Part shown: positions 23,802 through 46,361 of the stretch, piece after piece
How the letters are laid out: each line of letters opens with the position of its first letter
How positions within the stretch are numbered: position 1 is the first letter of the stretch
Source of the DNA: Tropicimonas marinistellae
GTDB lineage: Bacteria > Pseudomonadota > Alphaproteobacteria > Rhodobacterales > Rhodobacteraceae
Direction: 5' to 3'
Assembly: GCF_001509585.1 (NCBI RefSeq)
Contig: NZ_LNCI01000005.1
Span: 1 to 64,000, forward strand
DNA: 64,000 nucleotides
Program-made: the position numbers and the translations under genes
The notes under the pieces: model-generated
What the model was told of the DNA's origin: nothing
What the model saw: the letters and a program-made list of their open reading frames with translations, nothing else
Databases searched by the model: none

Positions 23802-23942
23802 GGGCAGGCGGCGCATCTGGCATACGCCACCAAGCTGCCGCGGGATGTCGCTTTTCTCCCTTTCAGGCCGCAATTTCGCGCCGGAATGGGTGCTGGTGCG
23901 GGTAGATTTGTCCGCAACAACGAGCGTTGATGAGGAATGACC

Positions 23943-31732: not shown

Positions 31733-33013
31733 CTAGGCGCTGTGGCGGCGACGGACGCTGGGCGGGCGACCCTCCAGAGTGAGCTGGCTGTCGTTGCGGG
31801 CCTTGGTGGAGACGACGCGGCCCTTGGAGATCACGGCGAGCCGGTCGGGGCGGAGGCGAACCGCCTCGATGGGGTCGCCCGCATCCAGAACAACGAGCGA
31901 AGCGGTGTTGCCCTCGGCGAGACCGTAGCCGTCCAGATGGAGGATTGCGGCATTCTCCGTTGTCACCATGTCGAAGCAACGACGCATCTCTTCGGGTGCG
32001 GTCATCTGGGCAACGTGAAGGCCCATGAAGGCGACATCCAGCATGTCCCCGGTGCCGAGGCTGTACCACGGGTCGCGCACGCAATCCTGGCCCCATCCAA
32101 CAGTGATGCCCTGTGCGTGCATTTCCTTCACCCGGGTCAGCCCCCGCCGCTTGGGGAAGGTGTCGTGGCGCCCCTGCAGGACGATATTGATCAGCGGGTT
32201 GGGAATGGCAGTGATCTCGGCCTCTGCGATGAGGGGCAGCAGCTTGGAGACATAGTAATTGTCCATCGAATGCATCGAGGTCAGGTGCGAGCCGGCGACG
32301 CGCCCGTTGAGGCCCAGGCGCTGTGTCTCGTAGGCGAGCGTTTCGATGTGACGGCTCATGGGATCGTCGGTCTCGTCGCAATGCATGTCGACGAGAAGGC
32401 CGCGTTCGGCGGCGATTTCGCACAGCGCGCGGACCGAGGCGCGGCCCTCGTCCATCGTGCGCTCGAAATGCGGGATGCCGCCGACCACGTCCACGCCCAT
32501 GTCGAGCGCCCGGAGCGTATTGGCGCGAGCGGTCGGATCGCGGAAGAACCCGTCCTGCGGGAAGGCAACGAGTTGCAGATCGAGATACGGTTTCACGCGC
32601 TCGCGGACCTCAAGCATCGCGGTGACGCCCTTCAGTTCATCGTCGCAGGTATCCACGTGGCTGCGGATGGCCAGAAGTCCGAGGCTCACAGCCCAGTCGC
32701 AATAGGCCAGCGCGCGGTCGACCATGGCGTCCACGGTCGTACTGGACTTCAGTTCCCCCCAGAGCGCGATTCCTTCGAGCAGCGTGCCGGAGGCGTTTAT
32801 CCGGGGTGTGCCGTAGCTGAGCGTCGCATCCATATGAAAATGCGGATCGACGAAGGGTGGGGAGACGAGGTCTCCGGTGGCGTCGATCTCCGTGCCGGCG
32901 GTCGATCCGGAAAGATCCCCGACGGCGGCGATGGTGGCGCCGGTGATGCCGATATCCGCGCGTGTACCATCCGGGAGCGTTCCGCCCGTCACGAGGATGT
33001 CGAATTCGGCCAT
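31733..33013 (-). CDS. Cytosine deaminase-like amidohydrolase (CodA family)
   Basis: 426 residues of the amidohydrolase superfamily, clearly like Escherichia coli CodA across its length. The metal site FVDPHFHMDATLS, VDMHCDETDD, GSHLTSMHSMDNYY, PNPLINIVLQGRHDT and PKRRGLTRVKEM are all present. The block that reads GHDDV in CodA is GQDCV here, so the second Asp, which contacts the pyrimidine in CodA, is Cys. The substrate may therefore not be cytosine. Its ATG shares one base with the upstream permease stop (TAATG), placing it last in the BMP-type importer operon. Confidence 0.9.
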   Translation of the reverse strand: MAEFDILVTGGTLPDGTRADIGITGATIAAVGDLSGSTAGTEIDATGDLVSPPFVDPHFHMDATLSYGTPRINASGTLLEGIALWGELKSSTTVDAMVDRALAYCDWAVSLGLLAIRSHVDTCDDELKGVTAMLEVRERVKPYLDLQLVAFPQDGFFRDPTARANTLRALDMGVDVVGGIPHFERTMDEGRASVRALCEIAAERGLLVDMHCDETDDPMSRHIETLAYETQRLGLNGRVAGSHLTSMHSMDNYYVSKLLPLIAEAEITAIPNPLINIVLQGRHDTFPKRRGLTRVKEMHAQGITVGWGQDCVRDPWYSLGTGDMLDVAFMGLHVAQMTAPEEMRRCFDMVTTENAAILHLDGYGLAEGNTASLVVLDAGDPIEAVRLRPDRLAVISKGRVVSTKARNDSQLTLEGRPPSVRRRHSA

Positions 33014-33957
33014 TAGCGTTCTCCGCGGTTGTAAGGTACCATCAGCGCCTCCGGCACTTCGGCGCGCCGCGACATGAGCACGAGCGCGAGGATCGAGAGC
33101 ACATAGGGCACCATGAGGAAGATCTGGTAAGGCACCACGGCGCCCAGCGGCGTCTGCTGCATCCGGATCTGGAGCGCATCGAAGGCCGCGAAAAGGATCG
33201 CGCCGAGCAATGCCTTGCCCGGTCGCCAGGCGCCGAAGACGACCAGCGCGATGCAGATCCAGCCGCGCCCGTTCACCATCTCGAAGAAGAAGGAGGAGAA
33301 GGCGGACATGGTCAGGAAGGCGCCGCCCACGGCCATCAGCCCGGAGCCAGCCACCACCGCGCCCATGCGGATCGCGGTTACCGACAAGCCCTGCGCCTCG
33401 ACGGCCGACGGGTTCTCGCCGGCGGCGCGCAGTGCGAGGCCGAGCGGGGTGCGGTACAGGACGAAGCCCACGACCGCCACGGTGGCGAGCGCCAGGTAGG
33501 TGAGCGGGGTTTGCGAGAAGAGGGATTCGCCCAGCAGCGGCAGATCCGAGAGCACCGGTATATCGACAGGCTGGAACGGCTCGATACGCGGCGGGCTCGT
33601 GACCTCGGGCAGCGCAAGGCGATAGGCGTAGTAGGCCGAGGAGGTCGCCAGCAGCGTCACCCCGAGGCCGACCACATGCTGTGACAGCCCCAGCGGGACA
33701 GTGAGCGTCGCGTGGAGCAGGCCGAAGAGCATGCCGGTCGCCATGGCCACCATCACGCCCGGCCACAGGCCGAGCCCGGCATAGACGGCCATCCAACCGG
33801 CGAAGGCGCCGATAACCATGATGCCCTCGATACCGAGGTTCAGCACGCCCGCGCGCTCGCAGATCAATTCCCCCATGGTTGCGAAGATCAGCGGCGAGGC
33901 GATCCGCAGGACGGCGCCCCAGAAGCTTGCGGTCATCAGGATGTCGAGGATCTCCAT
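33013..33957 (-). CDS. ABC transporter permease, BMP/nucleoside type
   Basis: 314 residues with about eight to ten hydrophobic segments. The motif GELICERAGVLNLGIEGIMV near the N-terminus is typical of the BPD_transp_2 permeases paired with BMP binding proteins that import nucleosides or nucleobases. It lies 4 bp after the first permease and overlaps the deaminase gene by one base, so coupled translation is likely. It forms the membrane channel with its partner permease. Confidence 0.92.
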   Translation of the reverse strand: MEILDILMTASFWGAVLRIASPLIFATMGELICERAGVLNLGIEGIMVIGAFAGWMAVYAGLGLWPGVMVAMATGMLFGLLHATLTVPLGLSQHVVGLGVTLLATSSAYYAYRLALPEVTSPPRIEPFQPVDIPVLSDLPLLGESLFSQTPLTYLALATVAVVGFVLYRTPLGLALRAAGENPSAVEAQGLSVTAIRMGAVVAGSGLMAVGGAFLTMSAFSSFFFEMVNGRGWICIALVVFGAWRPGKALLGAILFAAFDALQIRMQQTPLGAVVPYQIFLMVPYVLSILALVLMSRRAEVPEALMVPYNRGER

Positions 33958-33961
33958 TGGG

Positions 33962-35008
33962 CTATCCCCTCACCAGGTTGAATCGCGTCATCAGGATCGC
34001 GACGACCATGAACAGGAGCGCCGTTGCGAGAGAGATATCCGCAATATACGTAGGGACTTCCGCGGCGCGGCTCATGCTATCGGCGCCGACGAAAATGCCC
34101 GCCACGAAGAGCGCGGAGACGACGACGCCGAGGGGATGCAACAGGGCCAGCATGGCAACGATGATCCCGGTGTAGCCAAAGCCGGGCGACAGATCGAGCG
34201 TCAGGTTGCCCTTGAGGCCTGCCACCTCCGAGTAGCCCGCGAGCGCCGCGAGGCCGCCCGACAGGAGCGCTGTCTTCAGCAGCACGCTCCGCACCGGAAT
34301 GCCGGCAAACCTGGCCGCTTCGGGGTTCAAGCCCACGGCGCGGATCTCGTAGCCGAGTGTCGTCCTGACCTGGATGAACCAGACGACAACAGCGGAAATG
34401 AGGCCGAGCGCAAACCCCCAGTGCAGCCGGAGCCCGTCGACGATCCGCGGCAGGCGCGCATCGCGCGGGAGCGCCTCGGATTTCGGCCAGCCCATGCCCA
34501 TCGGGTCCTTCAACGGGCCTTCGAGCAGCATCGAGATAAACAGCAGCATGATGAAATTCAGCAGCAGCGTCGTGACCACCTCGTCGACCCCGAGCCGGAC
34601 CTTGAGCATCACCGGGAGCAGCAGCATCAGCGCACCGGCCGCCACCGCCGCCATCGCCATCACCGGAATGGCAACGGGGCCGGGCAGGCCGAGGCGGGTG
34701 CCGACCAGAACTGTCACGAGGGCGCCCGCGTAGAGCTGCGCTTCGGCGCCGATGTTCCACAGGCGCGCGCGGAAGGCGACCGCGACCGCAAGCCCGGTGA
34801 AGATCAACGGCGTCGCGCGGTTCAGCGTCTCCAGCACCGCGAACTTCGATCCCAGGGCGCCATTGACGATCAGGCCGAGGGTGGCCAGCGGGTTGGCCCC
34901 TGCCAGCATGGCGAGCAGCGAGGCGACGAGAACCGTCAGCGCCAGCGCGATGGCAGGGAAGCCGAGGGTGCGTCCGAGTGTTTGAGAGGCAACGGGTTCA
35001 AGCCGCAT
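33962..35008 (-). CDS. ABC transporter permease, BMP/nucleoside type
   Basis: 348 residues from the ATG at 35008 (MRLEPVASQT), which overlaps the ATPase gene by 11 bases. Multiple transmembrane segments are visible, and the family signature FRARLWNIGAEAQLYAGAL occurs at about 80-98. It is longer at the N-terminus than its partner permease, as usual for this pair. It forms the inner-membrane channel of the importer together with the 33013-33957 product. Confidence 0.92.
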   Translation of the reverse strand: MRLEPVASQTLGRTLGFPAIALALTVLVASLLAMLAGANPLATLGLIVNGALGSKFAVLETLNRATPLIFTGLAVAVAFRARLWNIGAEAQLYAGALVTVLVGTRLGLPGPVAIPVMAMAAVAAGALMLLLPVMLKVRLGVDEVVTTLLLNFIMLLFISMLLEGPLKDPMGMGWPKSEALPRDARLPRIVDGLRLHWGFALGLISAVVVWFIQVRTTLGYEIRAVGLNPEAARFAGIPVRSVLLKTALLSGGLAALAGYSEVAGLKGNLTLDLSPGFGYTGIIVAMLALLHPLGVVVSALFVAGIFVGADSMSRAAEVPTYIADISLATALLFMVVAILMTRFNLVRG

Positions 35009-36533
35009 GGTCGAATCCTTGTCCGGCCATCCACACGCCGAGTTCTGCCGGGGTTTTGGAGCCGCGTGGAAACTCCGGCGATACGCGGCCCTCGGAGATG
35101 ACGTGAATGACATCCGAAAGCGCCAGGATCTCGTCGAGGTCTTCGGAAATGAGCAATACCGCCGCGCCCGCGTCGCGCGCGGCGATCAGCCGTTCCTGCA
35201 CGTAGGTCAATGCGCCGATGTCGAGCCCCCGGACCGGCTGATTGGCGAGAATGATCCGAGGCCCGGCCTCCAGAACACGGCCCAAAATGAGCTTCTGCAT
35301 GTTGCCGCCCGAAAGCAGACGGATCCGCGCGTCGGGACCGGGGCAGCGGACATCGTAGCGGGAAATGATCTCCTCGGCGTGATGGCGCGCCTTTCCCCAG
35401 TTCATGATACCGCTGCTGCTGAACGGCGGGGCAGGGTACCCCTCCAAGACGGTATTCTCCGTCAGGGAGAAATCCGCGATCGACCCCTGTTTGTGGCGAT
35501 CCTCCGGAATTCTCCCGAGCCCGGCATTGAGCGCGGCCCGGGGCGACCATGTCTGCACAGGTTGACCGAACAGGCGCATCTCGCCGCGCTCCGGCGTGGC
35601 AAGGCCGCCGACCAGATCGGCCAGCGCGGCCTGTCCGTTCCCGGACACGCCCGCGATCCCGGTGATCTGCCCGGCCCGCAGCGACAGGTTTGCGCCGTCC
35701 AGTCCTACGCGACGCCCCTCGGCGGACAGGGATACATCCGCGAGTTGCAGCAATGTCTCGCCGGGAGTGCGGGCTTCGGCGCGCGGCAGCGTCACTTCGG
35801 CGCCGACCATCATCTCTGCGAGCTTGTGGCGATCGGTGTCCCGGGTCGCAACCTCGCCTGCCAGGCGGCCGTGCCGCAGCACGATCACGCGTTCGGAAAT
35901 CGCCATGACCTCGTGCAGCTTGTGGGAAATGAAGATGACCGACAAGCCGCGCGCGACCGCCTTGCGCAGGGTGTCGAAGAGCGCGTCGCTTTCCTGTGGG
36001 GTCAGAACGGCGGTCGGCTCATCGAGAATCAGGATGCGCGCATCGCGATAGAGTGCCTTCAGGATCTCGACCCGTTGCTTCTCGCCCACCGAGAGCGATT
36101 TTATCTGCGCGTCCAGATGCACTTTGAGCCCAAAATCCCGTGACAACACTTGCAGCCGTGTCCGGCCCCTGGATTTCGCGAGCCCCATGCGCCAGAGCGG
36201 TACCGTGCCAAGGAGCACGTTCTCCAGAACGGTCATGTTCTCCGCCAAAGTGAAATGCTGATGCACCATGCCCACGCCGGCGGCCAGCGCGGCACCGGGT
36301 GCGCCCGGCGGCATGACCTCTCCGAACACCTCGACGGTGCCTGCATCGGCCGTGTAGTGGCCGAACAGGATGTTCATCAGGGTCGTCTTGCCCGCGCCAT
36401 TCTCGCCCAGCAGTGCGAGGACTTCGCCCTCGTGGAGGGCGAAGCCGACATTGTCGTTGGCGGTGAGTTGGCCGAACCGCTTGGTGATGCCGTTCAGCCG
36501 TAGCACGACGCCCCGGGAAGGGGGGACGGTCAT
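34998..36533 (-). CDS. ABC transporter ATP-binding protein with two nucleotide-binding domains
   Basis: 511 residues. It has two fused ATPase domains as in sugar and nucleoside importers. Domain 1 has Walker A GENGAGKTT near 45, the signature LSVGEKQRVEI and Walker B ILILDEPTAVL. Domain 2 has the degenerate P-loop GVSGNGQAA, signature LLSGGNMQKL and IILANQPVRGLD. The ATG at 36533 shares one base with the stop of the binding-protein gene (TGATG). It energises uptake by the two permeases. Confidence 0.94.
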   Translation of the reverse strand: MTVPPSRGVVLRLNGITKRFGQLTANDNVGFALHEGEVLALLGENGAGKTTLMNILFGHYTADAGTVEVFGEVMPPGAPGAALAAGVGMVHQHFTLAENMTVLENVLLGTVPLWRMGLAKSRGRTRLQVLSRDFGLKVHLDAQIKSLSVGEKQRVEILKALYRDARILILDEPTAVLTPQESDALFDTLRKAVARGLSVIFISHKLHEVMAISERVIVLRHGRLAGEVATRDTDRHKLAEMMVGAEVTLPRAEARTPGETLLQLADVSLSAEGRRVGLDGANLSLRAGQITGIAGVSGNGQAALADLVGGLATPERGEMRLFGQPVQTWSPRAALNAGLGRIPEDRHKQGSIADFSLTENTVLEGYPAPPFSSSGIMNWGKARHHAEEIISRYDVRCPGPDARIRLLSGGNMQKLILGRVLEAGPRIILANQPVRGLDIGALTYVQERLIAARDAGAAVLLISEDLDEILALSDVIHVISEGRVSPEFPRGSKTPAELGVWMAGQGFDHAA

Positions 36534-37564
36534 CAGGCGGACGTCGGCTCTTCGTCGTTGATCTCGACTTCGAAATCGCCGGAACGAATGGCCGCTTCGC
36601 GCTCCGCCACGAGGTCCAGCGCCTGCTGCGGCACCTTGCCCTCGAAGGTTCCGAGCGGCGCCAGCGAGCATCCGCCCTCCTTCATGAAGCTGTAGAGGCC
36701 GTAATTCGCGGCTTCGAACGTGCCGTCGGCAACCTTTGCCAGCGCCGCCTGGAGCGTGGGTTCGAAATGCCACAACGCCGATGCGACGACGGTCTCCGGA
36801 TAATCCGCCTGCGTGTCGATGACGTTGCCGATGGCGAGAATTCCGCGCTCCTGCGCCGCGTCCGAAACACCGAAGCGTTCGGCATAGAGAAGGTCGGCGC
36901 CGTTCTCGATCATCGCGAAGGCGGTTTCCTTCGCCTTGGGCGGGTCGAACCATGACCCGATGAAGCTGACCTGGAAGGTGGCGTCGGGTTTGACCTCGCG
37001 AACGCCGGCCATGAAGGCGTGCATCAGACGGTTGACTTCGGGGATCGGGAACCCCCCGACCATACCAATATTGCCCGTTTCTGTCATCGCCCCGGCAATG
37101 ATTCCAGAGAGATAGGAGGCGTCCTGAATGTAATTGTCGAACACCGAGAGGTTCGGATAGGCGGGATCGTCGAGGAAGGAAGACCCCAGCAGGAACGCCG
37201 TCTCCGGGTAATCCAGCACGACCTCGCGCGCCTCCTGCTCGACACCGAAAATCTCGCCGACGATCAGCTTCACGCCTTGCTCGGCGTATTCACGCATCAC
37301 GCGCGGATAGTCCGTGTTCGCCGTATTCTCGCTGAACGTGTAGGTGATCTGACCGGCCGCCTTCGCGGCTTCTGCGGCGATATGGATGCGGCTGACCCAT
37401 TGCTGTTCAACCGGTACGGTGTAAATGCCGGCAACGCTGATGGGTTCTTGCGCCCAAAGACGCTTCGGCAAAAGCCCAAGCCCTGCCGCCGTTGCTGCCC
37501 CGCCAGCTCCAAGCAATAGCTGCCGGCGATGCAAACCTGCGGCATCGAAGGTTTTTCTTGTCAT
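36533..37564 (-). CDS. BMP family ABC transporter substrate-binding protein
   Basis: 343 residues. The N-terminus has a twin-arginine-type signal (HRRQLLLGAGGAATAAGLGLL), then EPISVAGIYTVPVEQQWVSRI. The BMP/PnrA-like fold shows as NIGMVGGFPIPEVNRLMHAF. Such periplasmic receptors bind nucleosides or nucleobases. AGGGGG lies 5 bases before the ATG. It heads the operon BMP-ATPase-permease-permease-deaminase, so the captured compound is probably the deaminase substrate or its precursor. Confidence 0.92.
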   Translation of the reverse strand: MTRKTFDAAGLHRRQLLLGAGGAATAAGLGLLPKRLWAQEPISVAGIYTVPVEQQWVSRIHIAAEAAKAAGQITYTFSENTANTDYPRVMREYAEQGVKLIVGEIFGVEQEAREVVLDYPETAFLLGSSFLDDPAYPNLSVFDNYIQDASYLSGIIAGAMTETGNIGMVGGFPIPEVNRLMHAFMAGVREVKPDATFQVSFIGSWFDPPKAKETAFAMIENGADLLYAERFGVSDAAQERGILAIGNVIDTQADYPETVVASALWHFEPTLQAALAKVADGTFEAANYGLYSFMKEGGCSLAPLGTFEGKVPQQALDLVAEREAAIRSGDFEVEINDEEPTSA

Positions 37565-37747
37565 GGTAGCCCCCTGTTCCGAGTCGTCTTGATGTGCGCC
37601 AATCTCGACTGTCGTTTGCCGGATGGAACAGTCTGAAACTGGCACGAAGGACGGGCTGTGGGAAGATGCGATGAAAATGTGCAGAACTTTTCCCGGACAT
37701 CATTTTTTGAGCACCCGTGATACCAGTCAGGGTTGCGTGGCGCGTGG

Positions 37748-38608
37748 TTATTCCAATTCGTCCAACTGCTCTCGGAGCTCCTCGACGCGTTCGAGGTGTT
37801 TTTGCCCCCGCTCGCTCAGCGCCCGGTTGGCTTCCACGATCAGCAATCTGAGAACCGACATCGCGCCGGCGTAGCTGTCGGCGAATTGCGGCGTGTCCAC
37901 GACGCAGTCCAGCGTCCACGTTGCGAATGCGGGCGCTTCTCGAATGGTCTGGTCGGCAATCAGAACGATGCGGGCGCCGCGCGCAGAGATGGCCTCGATT
38001 GTCTTCATGAAGCCACTCGGACGCCGCCTCAACCCTATGACAATCGCGAGATTTCCCTCTTCCAGCGCGGCGATGCCTTCCGACCGCGTCTGGCCCGGCA
38101 ACAGAAGCGGCGCCACGCCGGGCCGCATCTGTGCCAGTTGGGCGGTGATGTACTGGGCAAGGAAGTGGCTGTTGCGGTAGCCCAATGTGCGGATGCGTGG
38201 GGCCTCTGCGATCGCGGCACCGATTTCCTTGACCGCAATCGGGTTCAGTCGTGAGAGTGTCGCGTCGATCAGGGCGATTTCCTGCGCGGCGACGACCGAC
38301 AGGGGGTCGGCTCCCTGTTTCTGCGATGCGCCGGTGTAGAGCGGTGATCCGGTTGCGCGCATCCGGCGTGCGTCCTGCCGCGCCGCGTCAAAGCTGGCGT
38401 AGCCGAGACGACGGAAAAAGCGGCTGACGGTTGCGTTCGAAACCTGCGCCAGTCCGGCGAGCTCGGATCCGGACAGCACGGCGAGTTCTGCGGGACTGTC
38501 GAGGATTGCGTCTGCGATCAGTCGTTCGCCGTCTGACAAGCCCGCGTATGCTTCGTGAATGCGCCGAACCATGCTATGATCCCCTGAATTTGCCTGAGTT
38601 TTGGGCAT
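37748..38608 (-). CDS. MurR/RpiR family transcriptional regulator
   Basis: 286 residues from 38608; an in-frame ATG at 38572 is also well placed after AGGGG. The N-terminal RpiR helix-turn-helix reads SGSELAGLAQVSNATVSRFF at about 46-65. The C-terminal SIS domain, usually a phosphosugar or small-molecule sensor, includes RTLGYRNSHFLAQY. It is divergent from the TRAP transporter and upstream of the BMP importer on the same strand. It is thus well placed to control both uptake systems. The ligand is unknown. Confidence 0.9.
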   Translation of the reverse strand: MPKTQANSGDHSMVRRIHEAYAGLSDGERLIADAILDSPAELAVLSGSELAGLAQVSNATVSRFFRRLGYASFDAARQDARRMRATGSPLYTGASQKQGADPLSVVAAQEIALIDATLSRLNPIAVKEIGAAIAEAPRIRTLGYRNSHFLAQYITAQLAQMRPGVAPLLLPGQTRSEGIAALEEGNLAIVIGLRRRPSGFMKTIEAISARGARIVLIADQTIREAPAFATWTLDCVVDTPQFADSYAGAMSVLRLLIVEANRALSERGQKHLERVEELREQLDELE

Positions 38609-38710: not shown

Positions 38711-39244
38711 GTGTCGAAGATTGCCAGCAGAGCGAAAAGCTGGAGCCTTCGGGTCAACTGGCTCGTCGAACGGGTCTGTGTCGCGCTGCTGGTTGTTCTG
38801 GTGCTCGACGTCTGGCTCGGGGTGCTGGTGCGGTACGTCATTCCCCTGCCACTGACCTTTACCGAGGAACTTGCCCGCTACCTGATGATCTGGATGGCCT
38901 TGCTGGCGGTGTCTTCGGGTATCGCGCATCGCGAGCACATCGGCGTCGAATTCCTGTTCGGTCGCTTGCCCGCGCGGGTCCGGCGCTGGCTGGCCGTCAC
39001 CTTCGACGTGATCGCGTTCGCCTTCTTCTTCGCGCTGTTCTTCTACGGGATCGGCTTCGCGGTGAAGGGCTTCTCGCGGATCACGATGATTTACGCAATT
39101 CCAAAGGGTTACCCGTTCATGGGCGTGCCGCTCGCGGCCGCAATGGCCTGTGTCCAGCTCGCCCTCATCGGTATTCACGATTTCTTCGCGGAGAAGGCAC
39201 CGGAAGCGACGGGCGCGACGCTCGCAATGCAGGGAGACGAGTGA
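38711..39244 (+). CDS. TRAP transporter small permease (DctQ-like)
   Basis: 177 residues from a GTG start preceded by GGGGG. Four transmembrane segments are expected, with the DctQ-family features RYVIPLPLTFTEELARYLMIWMAL compressed into helices 1 and 2, and SSGIAHREHIGVEF. It is the small membrane subunit of a sodium-driven tripartite importer. Its stop overlaps the start of the large permease by one base (TGATG). It is the first gene of the plus-strand catabolic unit. Confidence 0.9.
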   Translation: MSKIASRAKSWSLRVNWLVERVCVALLVVLVLDVWLGVLVRYVIPLPLTFTEELARYLMIWMALLAVSSGIAHREHIGVEFLFGRLPARVRRWLAVTFDVIAFAFFFALFFYGIGFAVKGFSRITMIYAIPKGYPFMGVPLAAAMACVQLALIGIHDFFAEKAPEATGATLAMQGDE

Positions 39245-40527
39245 TGGGGACGGTGCTTGTCGCGGTCGCGTTCTTCGGTCTGATGGCGCTCGGGATGCCG
39301 GTCGGGTTTTCGATCGGGGTGGCCGGGATGATTGGCATCCTCGACATGGGGCCGCGCTTCATGCAGATGGCGCCGGACCGTGTGTTCGCGGGGCTGGACC
39401 TCTTTCCGTTCCTCGCGATGCCGTTCTTCATCCTTGCAGGCGAGATCATGAACCGCTCGGGCATCACCCAGGGTCTCGTGAAACTGGCCGATGCGCTGGT
39501 GGGTTGGATGCGGGGCGGCATGGCCCATTCGAACATGGTGGCCTCGGTGATGTTCGCTGGCATCACCGGCTCGGCCACGGCGGATGCGGCGGCCTTCGGC
39601 AACACGCTGGTGCCTGCGATGCAGCGCGCGGGCTACTCGCGTCCCTATGCGGCGGCGGTGACCGCGGCGGGTTCGATCATCGGGCCGACGATTCCGCCCT
39701 CGACGCTTGCGATTATCTACGGCTCGATCATGGGGGTCTCGATTGCCGGGCTCTTCGCGGCTGGCATCCTGCCCGGCCTGTTGATCTGCGGTATCTGCAT
39801 GGGGGTCATCGCCTTGACCGCCCGGCGGAAGAACCTGCCCAAGGGCGAGGGGCGGCCGAGCCTCTGCGCCGTCTGGGCGGCGTTGAAAGAGGGGATACTA
39901 GCCGCCTTGCTGCCGATCTTCATTCTCGGCTCGATCCTTGGCGGTTTCGCCACGCCGACGGAGGCCGCCGCGATTGCCGTGGCCTATGCGCTGTTCGTCG
40001 GCGGGGTGATCTATCGCGCGCTGTCCTGGCAGGACCTGTACGAGATCGGGGTTCGCACGACGCGGATCACCGGGGTGATCTTTCTCATCATTGCCTCGGC
40101 CTCCATTCTCGGCTGGTGGATGACCTTCAACCGTATCCCCCAGGCGATTGCCTCTGGCATGCTCGCGATTTCAGACAATCCCCAGGTGATCATCGGCCTG
40201 ATCCTCATCCTGTTGCTGGTGATTGGACTGGTGATGGATATCAACGCGACATTGATCATCCTCGCCCCGGTGCTCGCGCCGCTCACGCTGCAGATCGGCA
40301 TGGAGCCGGTCCACGCGGGGATCATGATCATCCTCGCCCTGAACATCTCGCTCATGACGCCACCTGTCGGGGCCTGCCTCTTCGTGCTCGCGTCCGTCAC
40401 GGGTGAAAAAGTCGAGAGCATCACGCGCGAGCTGTGGCCGTTCATCCTCGCCGAGGTCGGGATCCTGCTGCTTATCGCCTACTGGTCGAACCTGACGCTT
40501 TTCATACCAAGAATGCTGGGACTTTGA
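39244..40527 (+). CDS. TRAP transporter large permease (DctM-like)
   Basis: 427 residues with about twelve transmembrane segments. Typical DctM motifs are present: GMPVGFSIGVAGMIG at the start, the FAGITGSATADAAAFG loop, AAGSIIGPTIPPS and a final SLMTPPVGACLFV. It forms the transport channel with DctQ and receives substrate from the periplasmic DctP-type protein encoded 38 bp downstream. The substrate is inferred from neighbours to be an amino acid or ureido acid. Confidence 0.93.
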   Translation: MGTVLVAVAFFGLMALGMPVGFSIGVAGMIGILDMGPRFMQMAPDRVFAGLDLFPFLAMPFFILAGEIMNRSGITQGLVKLADALVGWMRGGMAHSNMVASVMFAGITGSATADAAAFGNTLVPAMQRAGYSRPYAAAVTAAGSIIGPTIPPSTLAIIYGSIMGVSIAGLFAAGILPGLLICGICMGVIALTARRKNLPKGEGRPSLCAVWAALKEGILAALLPIFILGSILGGFATPTEAAAIAVAYALFVGGVIYRALSWQDLYEIGVRTTRITGVIFLIIASASILGWWMTFNRIPQAIASGMLAISDNPQVIIGLILILLLVIGLVMDINATLIILAPVLAPLTLQIGMEPVHAGIMIILALNISLMTPPVGACLFVLASVTGEKVESITRELWPFILAEVGILLLIAYWSNLTLFIPRMLGL

Positions 40528-40565
40528 GTTCCGGCGCCACCTCCCAACAGGAAAGGACACTCTCA

Positions 40566-41603
40566 ATGACACTTCTCAGGACGGCGTCCGCCGCACTCGT
40601 CGGTATTTGCATGGCGGTCGGCGCGCAAGCGGCCGACATCACCATTCGCCTGGCGCATCTCAACCCGGAAGATCCGTTCGAATCCCATTCCGGCGCCATG
40701 GCGTCAGTGTTCAAATCCCTCGTGGAATCCAACTCCAATGGCCGTATCGAGGTGCAGCTGTTCCCGAACGGTCAGCTTGGCAAGGATAACGAGGTGATCG
40801 ATCAGGTCCGCTCCGGACTGGTCGAATCCACTATCTCGTCCTCGGGCGGCATGGCGCAGCACTACCCGCTGGTCGGCGTCTTCGACATTCCCTTCGCCTT
40901 CCCGAATATCGGCGTCGCCTCGAAGGTGATCGACACCGACAGTTCTTTCGGCATGAAATTCGTCGAGGATCTGGAGGCCAAGACCGGCCTTGAGGTGCTG
41001 GGGCTGATCGATTCCGGCGGGTTCTTCGCCTTTACGTCGAGCAAGGGGCCGATCGCGTCGGTGGCCGACATGGAAGGCCAGCGGATTCGCACCATGACCC
41101 TGCCGACGCATGAGGCGATCATTGCGTCGCTCGGCGGCCAGCCCACCGCACTGCCCTGGGCCGAGGTGTACACCGCGCTCCAGACCGGCGTCGCGGATGG
41201 CCAGATGAACCCGGTGCCGATCATCGCCTTTGCCAAGTTCGACGAGGTACAGAAGTACCTTTCCGTCACCAATCACCTCATCACGCCCTATATCTGGACG
41301 ATGAATCCTGACTTCTTCAACGGTCTCAGCGAAGAGGACCAGTATCTCGTCAAGTGGGCCGCCGACGTCGCAACCGACGCCGGACGCTCCATGAGCCGGG
41401 TAATCGAAGCCTCCGAGAAAGGGTTGCCGGCGCTGTCGGCCAAGATGGACGTGAATGTCGTCACGCCGGAAGAGCAGGCGAAATTCGCCGAGGCGGCCCA
41501 ACCGGCGGTTCGCGCCCTGATCGAAGAGAGCTACGGCGAAGAGGGCACCGCGATGCTCGATGCGATGCTCGCTTCCATCGACGAGGAAAAGACGGACTTC
41601 TGA
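40566..41603 (+). CDS. TRAP transporter substrate-binding protein (DctP-like)
   Basis: 345 residues. The N-terminal Sec signal peptide ends near GAQAADITIRL (about residue 22). The mature protein has the DctP fold, including LGGQPTALPWAEVYTALQTG, the conserved segment with the carboxylate-binding arginine just before it in GQRIRTMTLP. AAAGGA lies 8 bases before the ATG. Its ligand should be a carboxylate-bearing compound. It is followed after 67 bp by the diaminopropionate ammonia-lyase gene. Confidence 0.93.
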   Translation: MTLLRTASAALVGICMAVGAQAADITIRLAHLNPEDPFESHSGAMASVFKSLVESNSNGRIEVQLFPNGQLGKDNEVIDQVRSGLVESTISSSGGMAQHYPLVGVFDIPFAFPNIGVASKVIDTDSSFGMKFVEDLEAKTGLEVLGLIDSGGFFAFTSSKGPIASVADMEGQRIRTMTLPTHEAIIASLGGQPTALPWAEVYTALQTGVADGQMNPVPIIAFAKFDEVQKYLSVTNHLITPYIWTMNPDFFNGLSEEDQYLVKWAADVATDAGRSMSRVIEASEKGLPALSAKMDVNVVTPEEQAKFAEAAQPAVRALIEESYGEEGTAMLDAMLASIDEEKTDF

Positions 41604-41670
41604 TCCCAACACACCGGCCCGGGCGGTGCGCCCGGGCCACTGCCGGAACGGCACGATTTTCGAGGAAAGA

Positions 41671-42912
41671 ATGAGCACCGAGATCCAACGCGCTCCGGGC
41701 CAACCGGAGGCTTTTACATTGCATCTGAACAAGGCCGCGCAACGCGCGCTCCCGTGGACAGGCGCGCAGGACGCGATACTCAGCGACGCGGGCTACGCGG
41801 TTGCGAAGCAAACGATCTCCGGCTGGCCGGGATATGCGCGCAGCCCCCTAGAAGAATTGCCCGGGCTTGCGGCCGATCTCGGCGTGTCCAGCATTCACTT
41901 CAAGGACGAAGGCGGGCGCTTCGGCCTGGGCAGTTTCAAGGCGCTCGGCGGCGCCTATGCGGTTGCCCGGCTCCTGCAGTCGGAAATGGGCAAGTCGCTT
42001 GGACGCGCGGTGGGGATGGAGGAAGTCACGGGAATCGCCCACCCCGATCTTGCCGGTAAGATAACCGTCTGTTGCGCCACCGATGGCAATCACGGTCGGT
42101 CGGTTGCCTGGGGTGCACGCACATTTGGCTGCGCCTGTGTGATCTTCATCCATGCCACGGTTTCCGAGGCCCGCAAGACGGCGATCGAAGCCTATGGCGC
42201 GGAGGTCCGGCGCTGCGACGGAAACTACGACGACAGCGTCCGCGAAGCGCAGGAAACCGCGACCGCCGAAGGCTGGTTCGTGGTCTCCGATACGTCCTAC
42301 GAAGGGTATATGGACGTGCCCAAGGACGTGATGCAGGGCTATGAGATCATGGCCGGCGAGGCGTTCGATGAGCTTGAAACGCCGCCGACGCATATCTTTC
42401 TGCAAACCGGCGTGGGGGGGATGGCCGCCGCGGTGACAGCGCAGGCGAAACGCCGGTGGGGTGCGAAACGGCCTGCGATCATCCTCTGCGATCCAGACCA
42501 GTCGGCGTGCTATCTCGAGTCGTTCCGGGCGGGAGCGCCCGCGGCGGTCCATGGCGATCTGGACACGCTCATGGCGGGTCTGGCCTGTGGAGAGGTCTCC
42601 GCGCTCGCGTGGGAGATCCTGCGCGACCACGCCGACGCCGTCGTCGCGCTCACGGATGATGCGGCCGTTGGCGCCATGCGCAGGCTGGCGCGGCCGAGCG
42701 CCGGTGACACGCCGATTGTGGCCGGCGAATCCGCGGTTGCGGGTGTCGCCGTGCTGACGCTGCTCATGGCGGATGCCGAGGCACGGGACATGCTGCAGCT
42801 CGACAATCATGCGCGCGTTCTTTTCTTCGGAACGGAGAGTGACACGGACGCTGAACTCTATGAGCGGTTGGTCGGCATGAGCGCCGCAGAAGTCCGGGGG
42901 AGCACTGGATGA
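41671..42912 (+). CDS. dpaL: Diaminopropionate ammonia-lyase
   Basis: 413 residues, a PLP enzyme of fold type II. It converts 2,3-diaminopropionate to pyruvate and two ammonia; characterised homologues accept both D and L forms. The PLP lysine lies in FGLGSFKALGGAYA at about residue 90. TDGNHGRSVAWGARTFG and the phosphate-binding QTGVGGMAAAV are typical. GAGGAAAG precedes the ATG. The stop overlaps the next start (ATGA). The E. coli homologue YgeX likewise sits beside an M20 peptidase, which supports a linked pathway. Confidence 0.92.
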   Translation: MSTEIQRAPGQPEAFTLHLNKAAQRALPWTGAQDAILSDAGYAVAKQTISGWPGYARSPLEELPGLAADLGVSSIHFKDEGGRFGLGSFKALGGAYAVARLLQSEMGKSLGRAVGMEEVTGIAHPDLAGKITVCCATDGNHGRSVAWGARTFGCACVIFIHATVSEARKTAIEAYGAEVRRCDGNYDDSVREAQETATAEGWFVVSDTSYEGYMDVPKDVMQGYEIMAGEAFDELETPPTHIFLQTGVGGMAAAVTAQAKRRWGAKRPAIILCDPDQSACYLESFRAGAPAAVHGDLDTLMAGLACGEVSALAWEILRDHADAVVALTDDAAVGAMRRLARPSAGDTPIVAGESAVAGVAVLTLLMADAEARDMLQLDNHARVLFFGTESDTDAELYERLVGMSAAEVRGSTG

Positions 42913-44138
42913 CGCCGGAGGTTTCTCCTGCACGCTTGATGGGACGTGTCGAGGCCCTTGGCCGGATCGGGGCGCTCGATGGCGGCGGGGTTTGCCGCCT
43001 TGCGCTCACCGATGCGGACAAGGCCGGGCGCGACTGGCTTGTGAGCGAGATGCGCGACCTGGGCATGTCCGTCTTCGTCGACGCGATCGGCAATATCTGG
43101 GGTATTCGCCCCGGCCAGCGGGCCGGAGCGCCAGTCATGGTCGGCTCCCATATCGACTCGGTTGCCACCGGTGGCATCTACGACGGCGCGCTCGGCGTGC
43201 TGGGTGGATTGGAGGTTGTGACCGCGCTGAACGTGGCGGGGATCGAGACAGAGACACCGGTCGCGGTTGCCGCCTTCACCAACGAGGAAGGGGCGCGGTT
43301 TGCGCCGGACATGATGGGGTCGGGCGTCCATCAGGGCGCGCTTGTGCTCGAGGAAATGCTGACCGTGCAGGCGACCGATGGTTCTGGCGTCGTGGGCGAG
43401 GAGTTGGACCGGATCGGCTACCGGGGCAACGACGCCCCCATCACGCCGGCGGCCTATCTGGAACTGCATATCGAACAGGGCCCGGTGCTGGAGGCCGAGG
43501 GTGTGCGCATCGGTGCCGTGACCGGCGTCCAGGGGATCCACTGGACCGAGTTCGTGGTCGAGGGGCAGACCAATCATGCGGGCACAACGCCGATGGCACT
43601 GCGCCGGGACGCGGGGCAGGTGGCGATGCGGATTGGGCTGGAGGCGGACCAGATCGCCGCGGATGCCGGGCCGCCGCAGGTTGCCACCGTCGGCGTGTTT
43701 GAAATATCGCCGGGGCTGGTCAACGTGGTGCCGGAGCGCGCCCGGCTCACGGTCGACCTTCGCAACACCGACGGCGCGGCGCTGGTGGCCGCGACCGAGC
43801 GGTTGATCGGCCGGGCGGAGGCGTTCGCGGCGGAGGCCGGCTGTGTCCTGACGCACCGGCCGCTCGCCCGCTTCGCGCCGGTGGAGTTCGACGCACGGCT
43901 GGTGGACAGGGTCGAGGCTGCGGCCCGGACCCGGCAGTTGAGCGTCAAGCGGATGCCGTCCGGCGCCGGGCACGATGCGCAGATGTTTGCGCCGAATTGC
44001 CCGACGGCCATGATCTTCGTCCCGTCGCAAAACGGGCTCAGCCACAATATCAAGGAACATAGCGAAGAGGCGGATATCGTGGCGGGCACTCAGGTTTTGC
44101 TCGATCTCGTGTGCGACCTCGCGGGAGCGTCCTCATGA
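42909..44138 (+). CDS. M20-family N-carbamoyl/ureido hydrolase
   Basis: 409 residues. It belongs to the M20 subfamily of N-carbamoyl-L-amino-acid hydrolases, beta-ureidopropionases and allantoate amidohydrolases. Metal ligands are visible in VMVGSHIDSVATGGIYDGAL and FTNEEGARFAPDM, with the later HIEQGPVLEAEG and a C-terminal SGAGHDAQMFA. ATGA overlap on both sides (42909-42912 and 44135-44138) shows tight translational coupling with the lyase and the next amidase. It probably releases a carbamoyl group from the imported ureido compound. Confidence 0.92.
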   Translation: MTPEVSPARLMGRVEALGRIGALDGGGVCRLALTDADKAGRDWLVSEMRDLGMSVFVDAIGNIWGIRPGQRAGAPVMVGSHIDSVATGGIYDGALGVLGGLEVVTALNVAGIETETPVAVAAFTNEEGARFAPDMMGSGVHQGALVLEEMLTVQATDGSGVVGEELDRIGYRGNDAPITPAAYLELHIEQGPVLEAEGVRIGAVTGVQGIHWTEFVVEGQTNHAGTTPMALRRDAGQVAMRIGLEADQIAADAGPPQVATVGVFEISPGLVNVVPERARLTVDLRNTDGAALVAATERLIGRAEAFAAEAGCVLTHRPLARFAPVEFDARLVDRVEAAARTRQLSVKRMPSGAGHDAQMFAPNCPTAMIFVPSQNGLSHNIKEHSEEADIVAGTQVLLDLVCDLAGASS

Positions 44139-45052
44139 CCCGGAAATTCGTCGTTGCCGGTGCGCAACTCGGACCCATTGCCAAGAATGAACCGCGTAGC
44201 GAGGCCGTGGCCCGCATGTGCGCACTCATGCGTGTCGCCCATGCCCGCGGTGCCGCGCTGGTTGTGTTCCCAGAACTGGCGCTCACCACTTTCTTCCCGC
44301 GCTGGTTCATGGAAGATGCCGCGGAGATCGACCGGTGGTTCGAAACCGAGATGCCGAATGGAGATGTTGCGCCGCTCTTCGACCTGGCGCGGGAACTGGG
44401 CATCGGTTTTCATCTTGGCTACGCCGAGCGCACCCCCGAGGGGCGGCATTTCAACACCGCCATCCTGGTGTCGGAGCGTGGTGAAATCGTCGGAAAGTAC
44501 CGGAAGATCCATTTGCCCGGACACCGCGAAAACGAACCCTGGCGCCCGTTTCAACATCTCGAAAAGCGCTACTTCGAGAAAGGCGACCTGGGATTTCCCG
44601 TCTTCGAGGCCTTCGGCGGCAAGGTCGGCATGTGCATCTGCAACGACCGCCGCTGGCCCGAGACGTGGCGCGTGCTGGGTCTTGGCGGGGCGGAACTCGT
44701 GGCGCTCGGCTACAATACACCGCTGCATTACCCTCCGGCGCCGGAACACGATCACCTTCAGTACTTCCACAACGAGCTTTCGATCCAGGCCGGGTGCTAC
44801 CAGAACGGACTTTGGGCGGTTGCCGTGGCCAAGGCAGGCTTGGAAGAGGGCAGCGAATTGATCGGCGGGAGCATCATTGTCGCGCCAACCGGCGAGATCC
44901 TCGCGAGGGCCGCCACGCAGCGCGACGAGGTGATTTGCGCCGAGGTCGACCTGGACCGCTGCGCCGAGATCCGGGCGAATGTCTTCGATTTTGCGCAGCA
45001 TCGGGAACCGGAGGATTACGCAGCGATTACGCGCCCGAAATCCGGGGCGTGA
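44135..45052 (+). CDS. N-carbamoyl-D-amino-acid hydrolase (nitrilase superfamily)
   Basis: 305 residues, closely resembling the Agrobacterium D-carbamoylase. The triad is present: Glu47 in VVFPELALTT, Lys124 in GKYRKIHLPG and Cys169 in MCICNDRRWPE. The segments PFQHLEKRYFEKGDLGFPV and NTPLHYPPAPEHDHLQYFHN match the substrate pocket of that enzyme. It removes carbamoyl as CO2 and ammonia from D-amino acids. The ATG at 44135 overlaps the preceding stop. Confidence 0.93.
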   Translation: MTRKFVVAGAQLGPIAKNEPRSEAVARMCALMRVAHARGAALVVFPELALTTFFPRWFMEDAAEIDRWFETEMPNGDVAPLFDLARELGIGFHLGYAERTPEGRHFNTAILVSERGEIVGKYRKIHLPGHRENEPWRPFQHLEKRYFEKGDLGFPVFEAFGGKVGMCICNDRRWPETWRVLGLGGAELVALGYNTPLHYPPAPEHDHLQYFHNELSIQAGCYQNGLWAVAVAKAGLEEGSELIGGSIIVAPTGEILARAATQRDEVICAEVDLDRCAEIRANVFDFAQHREPEDYAAITRPKSGA

Positions 45053-45188
45053 CCGGAGACGGAACGGCGTCGGCTTCCGTCACTTCGAAAACCTCTCCCG
45101 GTCCGAAACCGTTGCGGAAAACACTGGTCGCGCGGGCTGGGAAACGTCAGTCTGGCACGACGAACGCATCGGCGGAGCGGAGGCGCAT

Positions 45189-46361
45189 ATGCAGGACTTC
45201 ACCTTCAACACCACGCCGTCTGTGCGTCAGATCGCGGGCGGTTCGGCGCGGTTGGGCGAGATCCTGGCGGACATGGTGTCCGTGCCGAAGGGAGCGGCCG
45301 TTTTGTTCGTCACCGATCCCGGACTCATGGCACTTGGACTGGCTGACGCGGCATTGGCGGATCTTGAGTCCAATGGCTTTGCGGTGACGCTTTTCGACCG
45401 GGTCGAGCCTGACCCCAAGGCGAGCACGGTTCAGGACGCGACGGCGATTGCGAACGATGCCGGGGCCGCCTGCGTGGTGGGCTTCGGCGGCGGCTCCTCG
45501 ATGGATGTCGCGAAGGTCGTGGCGCTTTGTCTGGGAACGGACCAGCCGCTCGATGAGATGTACGGTGTGGGCATGGCGCGGGGCAGGCGTGCGCCCCTCG
45601 TATTGGTTCCGACAACGGCGGGGACGGGCTCGGAGGTCACGCCCATCTCCATCCTGACCACCGGCACAGCGGAGAAAAAGGGGATCAGCTCTCCGCTCAT
45701 CCTGCCGGATATCGCGCTGCTCGATTGCGATCTGACATTGGGCCTCCCGCCGAGCGTGACAGCGGCAACGGGCGTGGATGCGATGGTGCACGCCATCGAG
45801 GCCTACACGTCGAAATCCGCCAACAACAACGTCCTCAGTCAAACCCTTGCGACGAAAGCGCTGGATCTTCTTTCGGCGAATATTCGCGAGGCGGTTTTCA
45901 ACGGCGGAAACCGGGAAGCGCGGGCTGCGATGTTGCTGGGCTCGCTTCTGGCCGGACAGGCCTTCGCGAACTCCCCGGTCGCGGCTGTTCATGCGCTGGC
46001 CTACCCGGTGGGGGCCTTGTTCAAGGTCCCGCATGGGCTCTCCAATGCCTTGGTGCTGGCCGAGGTCATGCGCTTCAATCTGCCGGTCGCTGGCCGGCAA
46101 TACGCCGAGCTGGCACCGCACATCTTCCCGGATATTGACACAGCACGCGATAGCCAGGCCATCGCAGCCGAATTGATTGAGCGACTGGCAAGGCTCAACG
46201 GGGAACTCGGGCTGGAGCCGGGATTGCGGAGCGTCGGCATTGGTGCGGGCGATATCGACAGGCTTGCCGCCGACGCGATGAAGCAGACGCGCCTTCTGGT
46301 GAACAATCCGTGCGAGCTGACGGAGGCAGACATTCGCGGCATCTACCAGGCATCGCTCTGA
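45189..46361 (+). CDS. Iron-containing alcohol dehydrogenase
   Basis: 390 residues of the group III Fe-dependent dehydrogenases. The NAD-binding motif GFGGGSSMDVAKVVAL is at about 95-110, followed by PTTAGTGSEVT and the metal site DAMVHAIEAYTS with HALAYPVGALFKVPHG. GGAGG lies 6 bases before the ATG, 136 bp after the amidase gene. It is the last gene before a strong terminator. Its substrate in this pathway is unknown; it may reduce or oxidise an aldehyde or hydroxyacid derived from the imported compound. Confidence 0.93.
   Translation: MQDFTFNTTPSVRQIAGGSARLGEILADMVSVPKGAAVLFVTDPGLMALGLADAALADLESNGFAVTLFDRVEPDPKASTVQDATAIANDAGAACVVGFGGGSSMDVAKVVALCLGTDQPLDEMYGVGMARGRRAPLVLVPTTAGTGSEVTPISILTTGTAEKKGISSPLILPDIALLDCDLTLGLPPSVTAATGVDAMVHAIEAYTSKSANNNVLSQTLATKALDLLSANIREAVFNGGNREARAAMLLGSLLAGQAFANSPVAAVHALAYPVGALFKVPHGLSNALVLAEVMRFNLPVAGRQYAELAPHIFPDIDTARDSQAIAAELIERLARLNGELGLEPGLRSVGIGAGDIDRLAADAMKQTRLLVNNPCELTEADIRGIYQASL

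What the first reader, a model, noticed from the sequence alone, without database searches (positions are those of the whole stretch)
38711..46361. Catabolic unit for an imported ureido or carbamoyl-diamino acid
A TRAP importer is followed by diaminopropionate ammonia-lyase, an M20 ureidohydrolase, an N-carbamoyl-D-amino-acid hydrolase and an iron alcohol dehydrogenase, with start/stop overlaps between the lyase and both hydrolases and one terminator at the end. The two hydrolases act on carbamoylated amino acids, and the lyase converts diaminopropionate to pyruvate and two ammonia. I infer a pathway in which a ureido derivative of 2,3-diaminopropionate (for example an albizziine-like compound) is imported, decarbamoylated and degraded. 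E. coli ygeX-ygeY is a partial parallel but lacks the D-carbamoylase and TRAP parts. I know of no published pathway of this composition.
Basis: partly seen in the sequence, partly recalled or inferred. Interest (0 to 1): 0.7.

Follow-up and report, generated by a model that had tools for sequence, protein, structure and literature searches.

The report
Ureido-diaminopropionate breakdown gene cluster
Several bacteria carry a conserved gene cluster that probably imports a urea-tagged form of the unusual amino acid 2,3-diaminopropionate, clips off the urea groups and turns it into pyruvate and ammonia, resembling the last steps of a recently described uric acid pathway but with different enzymes.

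Summary
Genes: TRAP importer (dctQMP), diaminopropionate ammonia-lyase (DAL), M20 carbamoylase, D-carbamoylase (DCase), Fe-alcohol dehydrogenase; DAL/M20 and M20/DCase overlap by 4 bp. DAL-M20-DCase stand together in 30 of 102 DAL rows examined, window included (28 distinct loci), in alpha- and betaproteobacteria, with correlated divergence (Mantel r 0.74-0.79, 25 loci), while the transporter changes. A RpiR regulator lies near in 25 of 30 rows; the Fe-ADH in 1 of 30, so it is not part of the unit.

Best reading: import of a ureido derivative of 2,3-diaminopropionate, perhaps (R)-2,3-diureidopropionate; DCase removes the 2-ureido group, M20 the 3-ureido group, DAL yields pyruvate and ammonia. 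Four of 30 trio rows add a hydantoinase; a Cupriavidus locus adds a YgeY-family hydrolase. This resembles the end of the reductive uric acid pathway (PMC12507026), but SsnA and YgfK reach cut-off in 0 of 16 genomes with DAL and DCase. Every reaction is inferred; the substrate is unproven. New variant of a known kind.

The parts
37748..38608 (-). RpiR/MurR-family regulator (HTH_6 + SIS), divergent from dctQ
   Evidence: Pfam HTH_6 and SIS over cut-off; a relative within 7 kb of DAL in 25 of 30 trio rows, two of the five misses on contigs cut 3 kb upstream
38711..39244 (+). dctQ, TRAP small permease
   Evidence: PF04290 91.6 bits, cut-off 28.3
39244..40527 (+). dctM, TRAP large permease
   Evidence: TIGR00786 396.9 bits, cut-off 268.45; start chosen
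40566..41603 (+). dctP, TRAP solute-binding protein; the Arg that binds ligand carboxylates in this family (role recalled) is aligned in GQRIRT
   Evidence: TIGR00787 196.6 bits, cut-off 175.05; best solved chains 4n8g and 4ngu
41604..41670 (+). dctP-DAL gap with a GC-rich hairpin, perhaps intercistronic
   Evidence: a stem-loop is predicted in 15 of 15 gaps folded, a 16th (L122) skipped as too long; some gap stretches ran on into DAL; no shuffle control was made
41671..42912 (+). diaminopropionate ammonia-lyase (DAL), PLP enzyme
   Evidence: NF006058 491.9 bits, cut-off 276; closest solved 5ygr and 4d9g; Lys77, Asp120, His123, Tyr168, Asp189 (E. coli numbering, roles recalled) in 91 of 91 aligned DALs
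42909..44138 (+). M20 hydantoinase/carbamoylase-family hydrolase; inferred 3-ureido hydrolase
   Evidence: TIGR01879 390.1 bits, cut-off 204; best solved relative 5thw; family motifs present and conserved among 12 aligned
44135..45052 (+). N-carbamoyl-D-amino-acid hydrolase (nitrilase fold); inferred 2-ureido hydrolase
   Evidence: 1fo6 E 1.3e-124 over residues 1-298; Glu, Lys, His, Cys, Asn and two Arg of the active site (roles recalled) in 50 of 50 aligned, 7 of them from loci without DAL
45189..46361 (+). Fe-dependent alcohol dehydrogenase; neighbour, probably not part of the unit
   Evidence: PF25137 163.8 and PF00465 143.9 bits over cut-off; the 17 NCBIfam models listed are below their cut-offs; near DAL in 1 of 30 trio rows, the window itself

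Best explanation
A catabolic operon for ureido derivatives of 2,3-diaminopropionate. The TRAP system imports a carboxylate carrying one or two ureido groups, perhaps (R)-2,3-diureidopropionate. The D-carbamoylase hydrolyses the alpha (2-)ureido group to give albizziin (2-amino-3-ureidopropionate). The M20 enzyme hydrolyses the 3-ureido group, whose skeleton is that of N-carbamoyl-beta-alanine, to give 2,3-diaminopropionate. DAL converts this to pyruvate and two ammonia. The RpiR protein probably regulates the unit. Shown: gene identities, conserved active-site residues, conserved order, correlated divergence, change of transporter. Inferred: every reaction, the order of the two ureido cuts, the substrate, its stereochemistry, the regulation.
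For: Trio in 30 of 102 DAL rows, window included (28 distinct loci). Pairwise divergences of the three proteins correlate (r 0.739, 0.791, 0.778; 0 of 2000 permutations as high; 25 of the 30 rows used). In the 28 distinct loci the transporter nearby is TRAP in 15, Pot-type ABC in 7, only a PotC-like piece in 1 (L078), Dpp-type ABC in 2, MFS in 2, another ABC in 1 (Dpp, the second MFS and the last ABC named by eye). Hydantoinase in 4 of 30 trio rows, always with Pot-ABC; TIGR02033 over cut-off in the two tested, interrupted in L054 (by eye). YgeY-family hydrolase in Cupriavidus L063 (NF009555 392.9, cut-off 321), a near copy by eye in L148. Published chemistry: HyuA, UacY or YgeW, YgeY and YgeX turn ureidomethyl-hydantoin into pyruvate by way of albizziin; UacY is a D-aminoacylase homologue and YgeX acts on both isomers (PMC12507026); R configuration proposed (PMC12990295). 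The best solved M20 relative, 5THW, is cited with N-carbamoyl-beta-alanine bound (PMC10952681 passage). Next-best DAL and DCase matches in the own genome are distant (28% and less; 27% and 34%).
Against: No substrate is shown for any protein. 17 rows have DAL and DCase without M20 at the site and 9 have M20 without DCase, so two ureido cuts may not always be needed. 46 of 102 rows have neither (one, L138, is a cut piece of L124; some contigs are short). The correlation would also follow from shared species history. DAL is below the YgeX equivalog cut-off (344.8 against 532.25). SsnA and YgfK reach cut-off in 0 of 16 genomes, so the substrate would have to come from outside, and I found no environmental source of diureidopropionate. 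Four Pot-type or Pot-like loci show no hydantoinase nearby. Related D-carbamoylases also sit in loci without DAL. Three other M20 relatives exist in the genome (35-40% identical).
Confidence: 0.55

Rival explanations
1. Division by enantiomer: the substrate has a single alpha-ureido group (N2-carbamoyl-diaminopropionate or its hydantoin) and occurs as both isomers; DCase takes the D form, M20 the L form, and DAL both.
For: The M20 family includes L-carbamoylases (3n5f, 8apz among the hits). E. coli YgeX is equally active on both isomers (PMC12507026). Loci with only one of the hydrolases exist (17 DCase only, 9 M20 only). Asp/Glu/hydantoin racemases stand in loci L058, L061 and L105.
Against: The 5THW relative is cited with a beta-ureido acid bound. 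Cupriavidus L063 has a YgeY-family hydrolase besides M20 and DCase. I know of no natural source of a racemic mono-ureido compound.
Confidence: 0.2
2. General salvage of hydantoin-derived or N-carbamoyl amino acids, with a DAL-family enzyme acting on another 3-substituted alanine.
For: D-carbamoylase and hydantoinase stand together without DAL in L142, L144 and L153. The DAL here is below the YgeX equivalog cut-off.
Against: DAL active-site residues identical in 91 of 91; three genes with 4-bp overlaps in the window; correlated divergence.
Confidence: 0.15
3. The source is a plant or antibiotic ureido amino acid (L-albizziine, or ureido-alanine residues of peptide antibiotics, the latter recalled) rather than a uric-acid intermediate; M20 would do most of the work and DCase handle a D isomer.
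For: Albizziin has been isolated from seeds (PMC12990295). Rhizobium carriers exist. Nine rows have M20 without DCase.
Against: DCase stands with DAL in 47 of 102 rows, 17 of them without M20, which a purely L-configured substrate would not need.
Confidence: 0.1

Closest known systems
Reductive uric acid pathway of E. coli and C. difficile (ygeW/uacY, ygeY, ygeX, hyuA, ssnA, ygfK/uacX, xdhD)
   Same: [quoted passage not shown] DAL homologous to YgeX (37%); the hydantoinase of some relatives is a HyuA homologue (37%)
   Different: SsnA and YgfK reach cut-off in 0 of 16 genomes (XdhD and UacX not searched genome-wide); 2-ureido step inferred for a nitrilase-fold D-carbamoylase instead of the carbamoyltransferase YgeW or the D-aminoacylase UacY; 3-ureido step inferred for an M20 protein that gives no BLAST match with YgeY at E 1e-3; dedicated importer
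D-hydantoinase / D-carbamoylase hydantoin utilisation
   Same: D-carbamoylase closely related (1fo6); hydantoinase in 4 of 30 trio rows
   Different: M20 and DAL added; no hydantoinase beside the window cluster
Reductive pyrimidine degradation (dihydropyrimidinase, beta-ureidopropionase)
   Same: M20 family shared; a pyrimidine-type locus of the own genome (L134, judged by eye except for its M20) has an M20 40% identical
   Different: The window M20 is a separate paralogue and lies with DAL and DCase

Membership tests
Diaminopropionate ammonia-lyase family | family model over curated cut-off | tested here: met
   NF006058 491.9 against 276; TIGR01747 306.4 against 274
Diaminopropionate ammonia-lyase family | PLP lysine and catalytic aspartates (roles recalled) | tested here: met
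   K77, D120, D189 in 91 of 91 aligned
YgeX equivalog (TIGR03528) | score over equivalog cut-off | tested here: not met
   344.8 against 532.25
N-carbamoyl-D-amino-acid hydrolase | Glu-Lys-Cys centre and the two Arg after Cys (roles recalled) | tested here: met
   50 of 50 aligned proteins; alignment with 1fo6
N-carbamoyl-D-amino-acid hydrolase | activity and D specificity | not testable with these tools
   needs an assay
Hydantoinase/carbamoylase M20 family (TIGR01879) | family model over cut-off and metal-site motifs (roles recalled) | tested here: met
   390.1 against 204; motifs
Allantoate deiminase AllC | equivalog cut-off | tested here: not met
   TIGR03176 256.8 against 597.75; the subfamily model NF006771, also named allantoate amidohydrolase, is just passed (404.2 against 399)
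Reductive uric acid pathway | SsnA in the genome | tested here: not met
   0 of 16 over cut-off, weaker matches in 12; 1 of 14 control genomes over cut-off
Reductive uric acid pathway | YgfK in the genome | tested here: not met
   0 of 16 over cut-off, weaker matches in 16; 1 of 14 control genomes over cut-off
Reductive uric acid pathway | UacX and XdhD in the genome | not tested
   no genome-wide search made
Reductive uric acid pathway | YgeW, YgeY, HyuA, XdhD homologues in the window | tested here: not met
   of 11 E. coli proteins only YgeX matched the window at E 1e-5
TRAP transporter | three subunits together | tested here: met
   DctP, DctQ, DctM over Pfam cut-offs

The most novel reading that the evidence does not exclude
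An unrecognised environmental pool of reductive uric-acid intermediates (ureidomethyl-hydantoin, diureidopropionate, albizziin), released by anaerobic urate reducers, is scavenged by bacteria that carry a self-contained hydrolytic half-pathway: cross-feeding between anaerobic urate reduction and bacteria that lack its upstream enzymes.
Probability: 0.25. Interest if true: 0.75.

Novelty: new variant of a known kind. Interest (0 to 1): 0.55.

Why it matters
It would show that the chemistry at the end of the newly described urate pathway also exists as a separate, importer-coupled unit with a different 2-ureido enzyme, in bacteria without SsnA and YgfK. It gives candidate functions to a TRAP binding protein, an M20 lineage and a D-carbamoylase lineage named only by similarity, and bears on the open question (PMC12990295) of which ureido group is cut first and in which stereoisomer.

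Tried and rejected
Fe-ADH as a pathway member: rejected, near DAL in 1 of 30 trio rows. Allantoate amidohydrolase as the M20 function: rejected at the AllC cut-off; two subfamily models carry that name, of which NF006771 is just passed (404.2 against 399) and NF006769 is not (423.2 against 452), and the best solved relatives are others. N-carbamoylputrescine amidase for DCase: 121.9 against 410.25. Divergent BMP-type ABC plus PRK07572 deaminase as part of the pathway: five similar genes stand 9-14 kb from DAL in a Thioclava-like genome, G254, downstream instead of upstream, but the deaminase was found within the held DNA of only 4 of 30 trio rows (window and three Thioclava or identical rows) and the binding protein in 1, so it is left as a neighbour. 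Reductive urate route in the own genome: no SsnA or YgfK at cut-off. Hydantoinase elsewhere in the own genome: a 41% copy lies in a pyrimidine-type locus (L134, largely by eye) and a 29% copy (L135) is closest to the ErtD family, under its cut-off. Ureidoglycolate-lyase-like gene upstream of the trio in L105 (all models below cut-off): not followed. Literature on DAL structure and TRAP ligands gave nothing usable. Passages of three further papers that mention DAL describe no such cluster. Structure prediction was not run.
Full report
OBSERVATION. DAL and M20, and M20 and DCase, overlap by four bases. DctP, DctQ and DctM form a complete TRAP set. DAL passes the family model NF006058 (491.9 bits, cut-off 276) but not the YgeX equivalog TIGR03528 (344.8, cut-off 532.25). 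The M20 protein is in the hydantoinase/carbamoylase family TIGR01879 (390.1, cut-off 204) and below the AllC equivalog, though it just passes a subfamily model named allantoate amidohydrolase (NF006771, 404.2, cut-off 399). The third enzyme aligns over 298 residues with the D-carbamoylase 1fo6. The terminator-like hairpin at the end is not more than shuffles give for the region.

CONSERVATION. In its genome DAL has only distant further matches (28% identity or less). DAL homologues came from searches of the family (45 of 295 genomes at E 1e-60), class (50 of 385 at E 1e-90) and phylum (26 of 398), of which 60 of 124 listed places were fetched; from 29 named loci; and from 11 of 153 plasmid records. 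Of 102 DAL-bearing rows with flanks, window included, DCase and M20 both follow in 30, DCase alone in 17, M20 alone in 9, neither in 46. The rows include duplicates, contig ends and one cut piece (L138); the 30 are 28 distinct loci. The rows were chosen by DAL similarity, so these are not frequencies in nature. The trio is found in three Cupriavidus plasmids (Betaproteobacteria; L063, L148, L149) and in a genome of the same phylum but another class (G746). Divergences of the three proteins correlate across 25 loci (r 0.739, 0.791, 0.778, none of 2000 permutations as high). Shared species history would also give such a correlation, so this shows co-inheritance, not function by itself. In trees of DAL (92 rows) and DCase (50 rows) the window stands among rows from like clusters; several deep forks are open, and D-carbamoylases from loci without DAL are mixed into the DCase tree, so the cluster type is not one clean clade there.

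WHAT TRAVELS WITH THE TRIO. Among the 30 rows: an RpiR relative in 25, DctM (60% or more) in 17, PotD in 7, hydantoinase in 4, Fe-ADH within 6 kb in 1, the window itself. In the 28 distinct loci the transporter is TRAP in 15, Pot-type ABC in 7, a PotC-like piece only in L078, Dpp-type ABC in L094 and L105, MFS in L063 and L148, another ABC in L149 (the last three groups partly by eye). Two Rhizobium plasmids annotated by others show dihydropyrimidinase, ABC transporter, regulator (called hypothetical in one), DAL, Zn-dependent hydrolase, N-carbamoyl-D-amino-acid hydrolase. In L054 the hydantoinase match ends at a transposase-like frame (by eye). In Cupriavidus L063 an MFS transporter and a YgeY-family hydrolase (NF009555 392.9, cut-off 321; TIGR03526 218.8, below 321.5) follow the trio. 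L058, L061 and L105, all with DAL and DCase, carry an Asp/Glu/hydantoin racemase and an amidase within the held DNA.

MECHANISM. Li et al. (PMC12507026; abstract, part 1 of 3 of Results, and Discussion read) showed in vitro that ureidomethyl-hydantoin is opened by HyuA to 2,3-diureidopropionate, that YgeW or the D-aminoacylase homologue UacY gives albizziin, and that YgeY with YgeX turns albizziin into pyruvate. Percudani (PMC12990295, first of two parts read) notes that the order of cuts is disputed and that an R configuration was proposed. In the window, DCase would be the counterpart of UacY, M20 of YgeY, DAL of YgeX, and the hydantoinase of relatives that of HyuA. The best solved M20 relative, 5THW, is cited with N-carbamoyl-beta-alanine bound (PMC10952681, passages), which is albizziin without its amino group. 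All this is inference from homology and context.

WHAT IS MISSING. In 16 genomes with DAL and DCase together (12 of them with M20 too) no SsnA and no YgfK reached the family cut-off, while 1 of 14 control genomes did in each search. Matches below cut-off were found in 12 and 16 genomes and are read as other amidohydrolases and as a domain shared with glutamate-synthase-like proteins (my reading, not tested). XdhD and UacX were not searched genome-wide. With the Rhizobium hydantoinase as query, 15 of 16 genomes had a match at E 1e-60; among ten TRAP-type genomes one (G153) had copies over 50% identical, eight only copies of 41-43%, and G746 none. The own copy lies in a pyrimidine-type locus (largely by eye). 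This fits a TRAP variant importing an already opened acid and a Pot-ABC variant importing a hydantoin, but L055, L057, L062 and the Pot-like L078 show no hydantoinase nearby, which is against a strict rule.

PRIOR ART. Seven searches of open-access full text listed no paper whose title or abstract start concerns this gene composition; one search listed 15 of its 16 papers. Besides the two urate papers and two enzyme papers (PMC11503299 and PMC10952681, passages) I looked at passages of three papers that mention DAL (PMC4809877, PMC4417242, PMC6754898); they describe no such cluster. Other listed papers were not opened; subscription papers and preprints are not covered.

VERDICT. A real, conserved catabolic unit, function inferred with moderate confidence, read as a new variant of the diaminopropionate end of reductive urate breakdown, without the Fe-ADH and with the RpiR regulator.

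Noticed in passing
31733-37645 (- strand): BMP-type ABC transporter (binding protein, ATPase, two permeases) with a PRK07572 cytosine-deaminase-like amidohydrolase; five similar genes (67-78% identical) stand 9-14 kb from DAL in G254 (L146).
   Followed up: partly
41604-41670: GC-rich hairpin between dctP and DAL, predicted in 15 of 15 TRAP-type gaps folded although the stem sequence varies; no shuffle control. Perhaps mRNA processing or stabilisation after the binding-protein gene.
   Followed up: partly
L063 12893-14053: YgeY-family hydrolase next to the trio on a Cupriavidus plasmid, with an MFS transporter.
   Followed up: partly
L105 8790-9266: Ureidoglycolate-lyase-like gene just upstream of DAL-M20-DCase, all models below cut-off.
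   Followed up: no
L066, L068, L070, L127, L128: More distant DALs (47-50% identical) stand with an Lrp regulator and an M20 aminoacylase instead of DCase, which may point to acyl rather than carbamoyl diaminopropionates.
   Followed up: no
23937-25481 (+): Open frame that looks like a trimethylamine methyltransferase (MttB-like), by eye only.
   Followed up: no
L135 (own genome C39:145500-165400): Locus with a hydantoin-propionate amidohydrolase-like gene (ErtD model 464.7, cut-off 600) and, by eye, a TRAP system.
   Followed up: no
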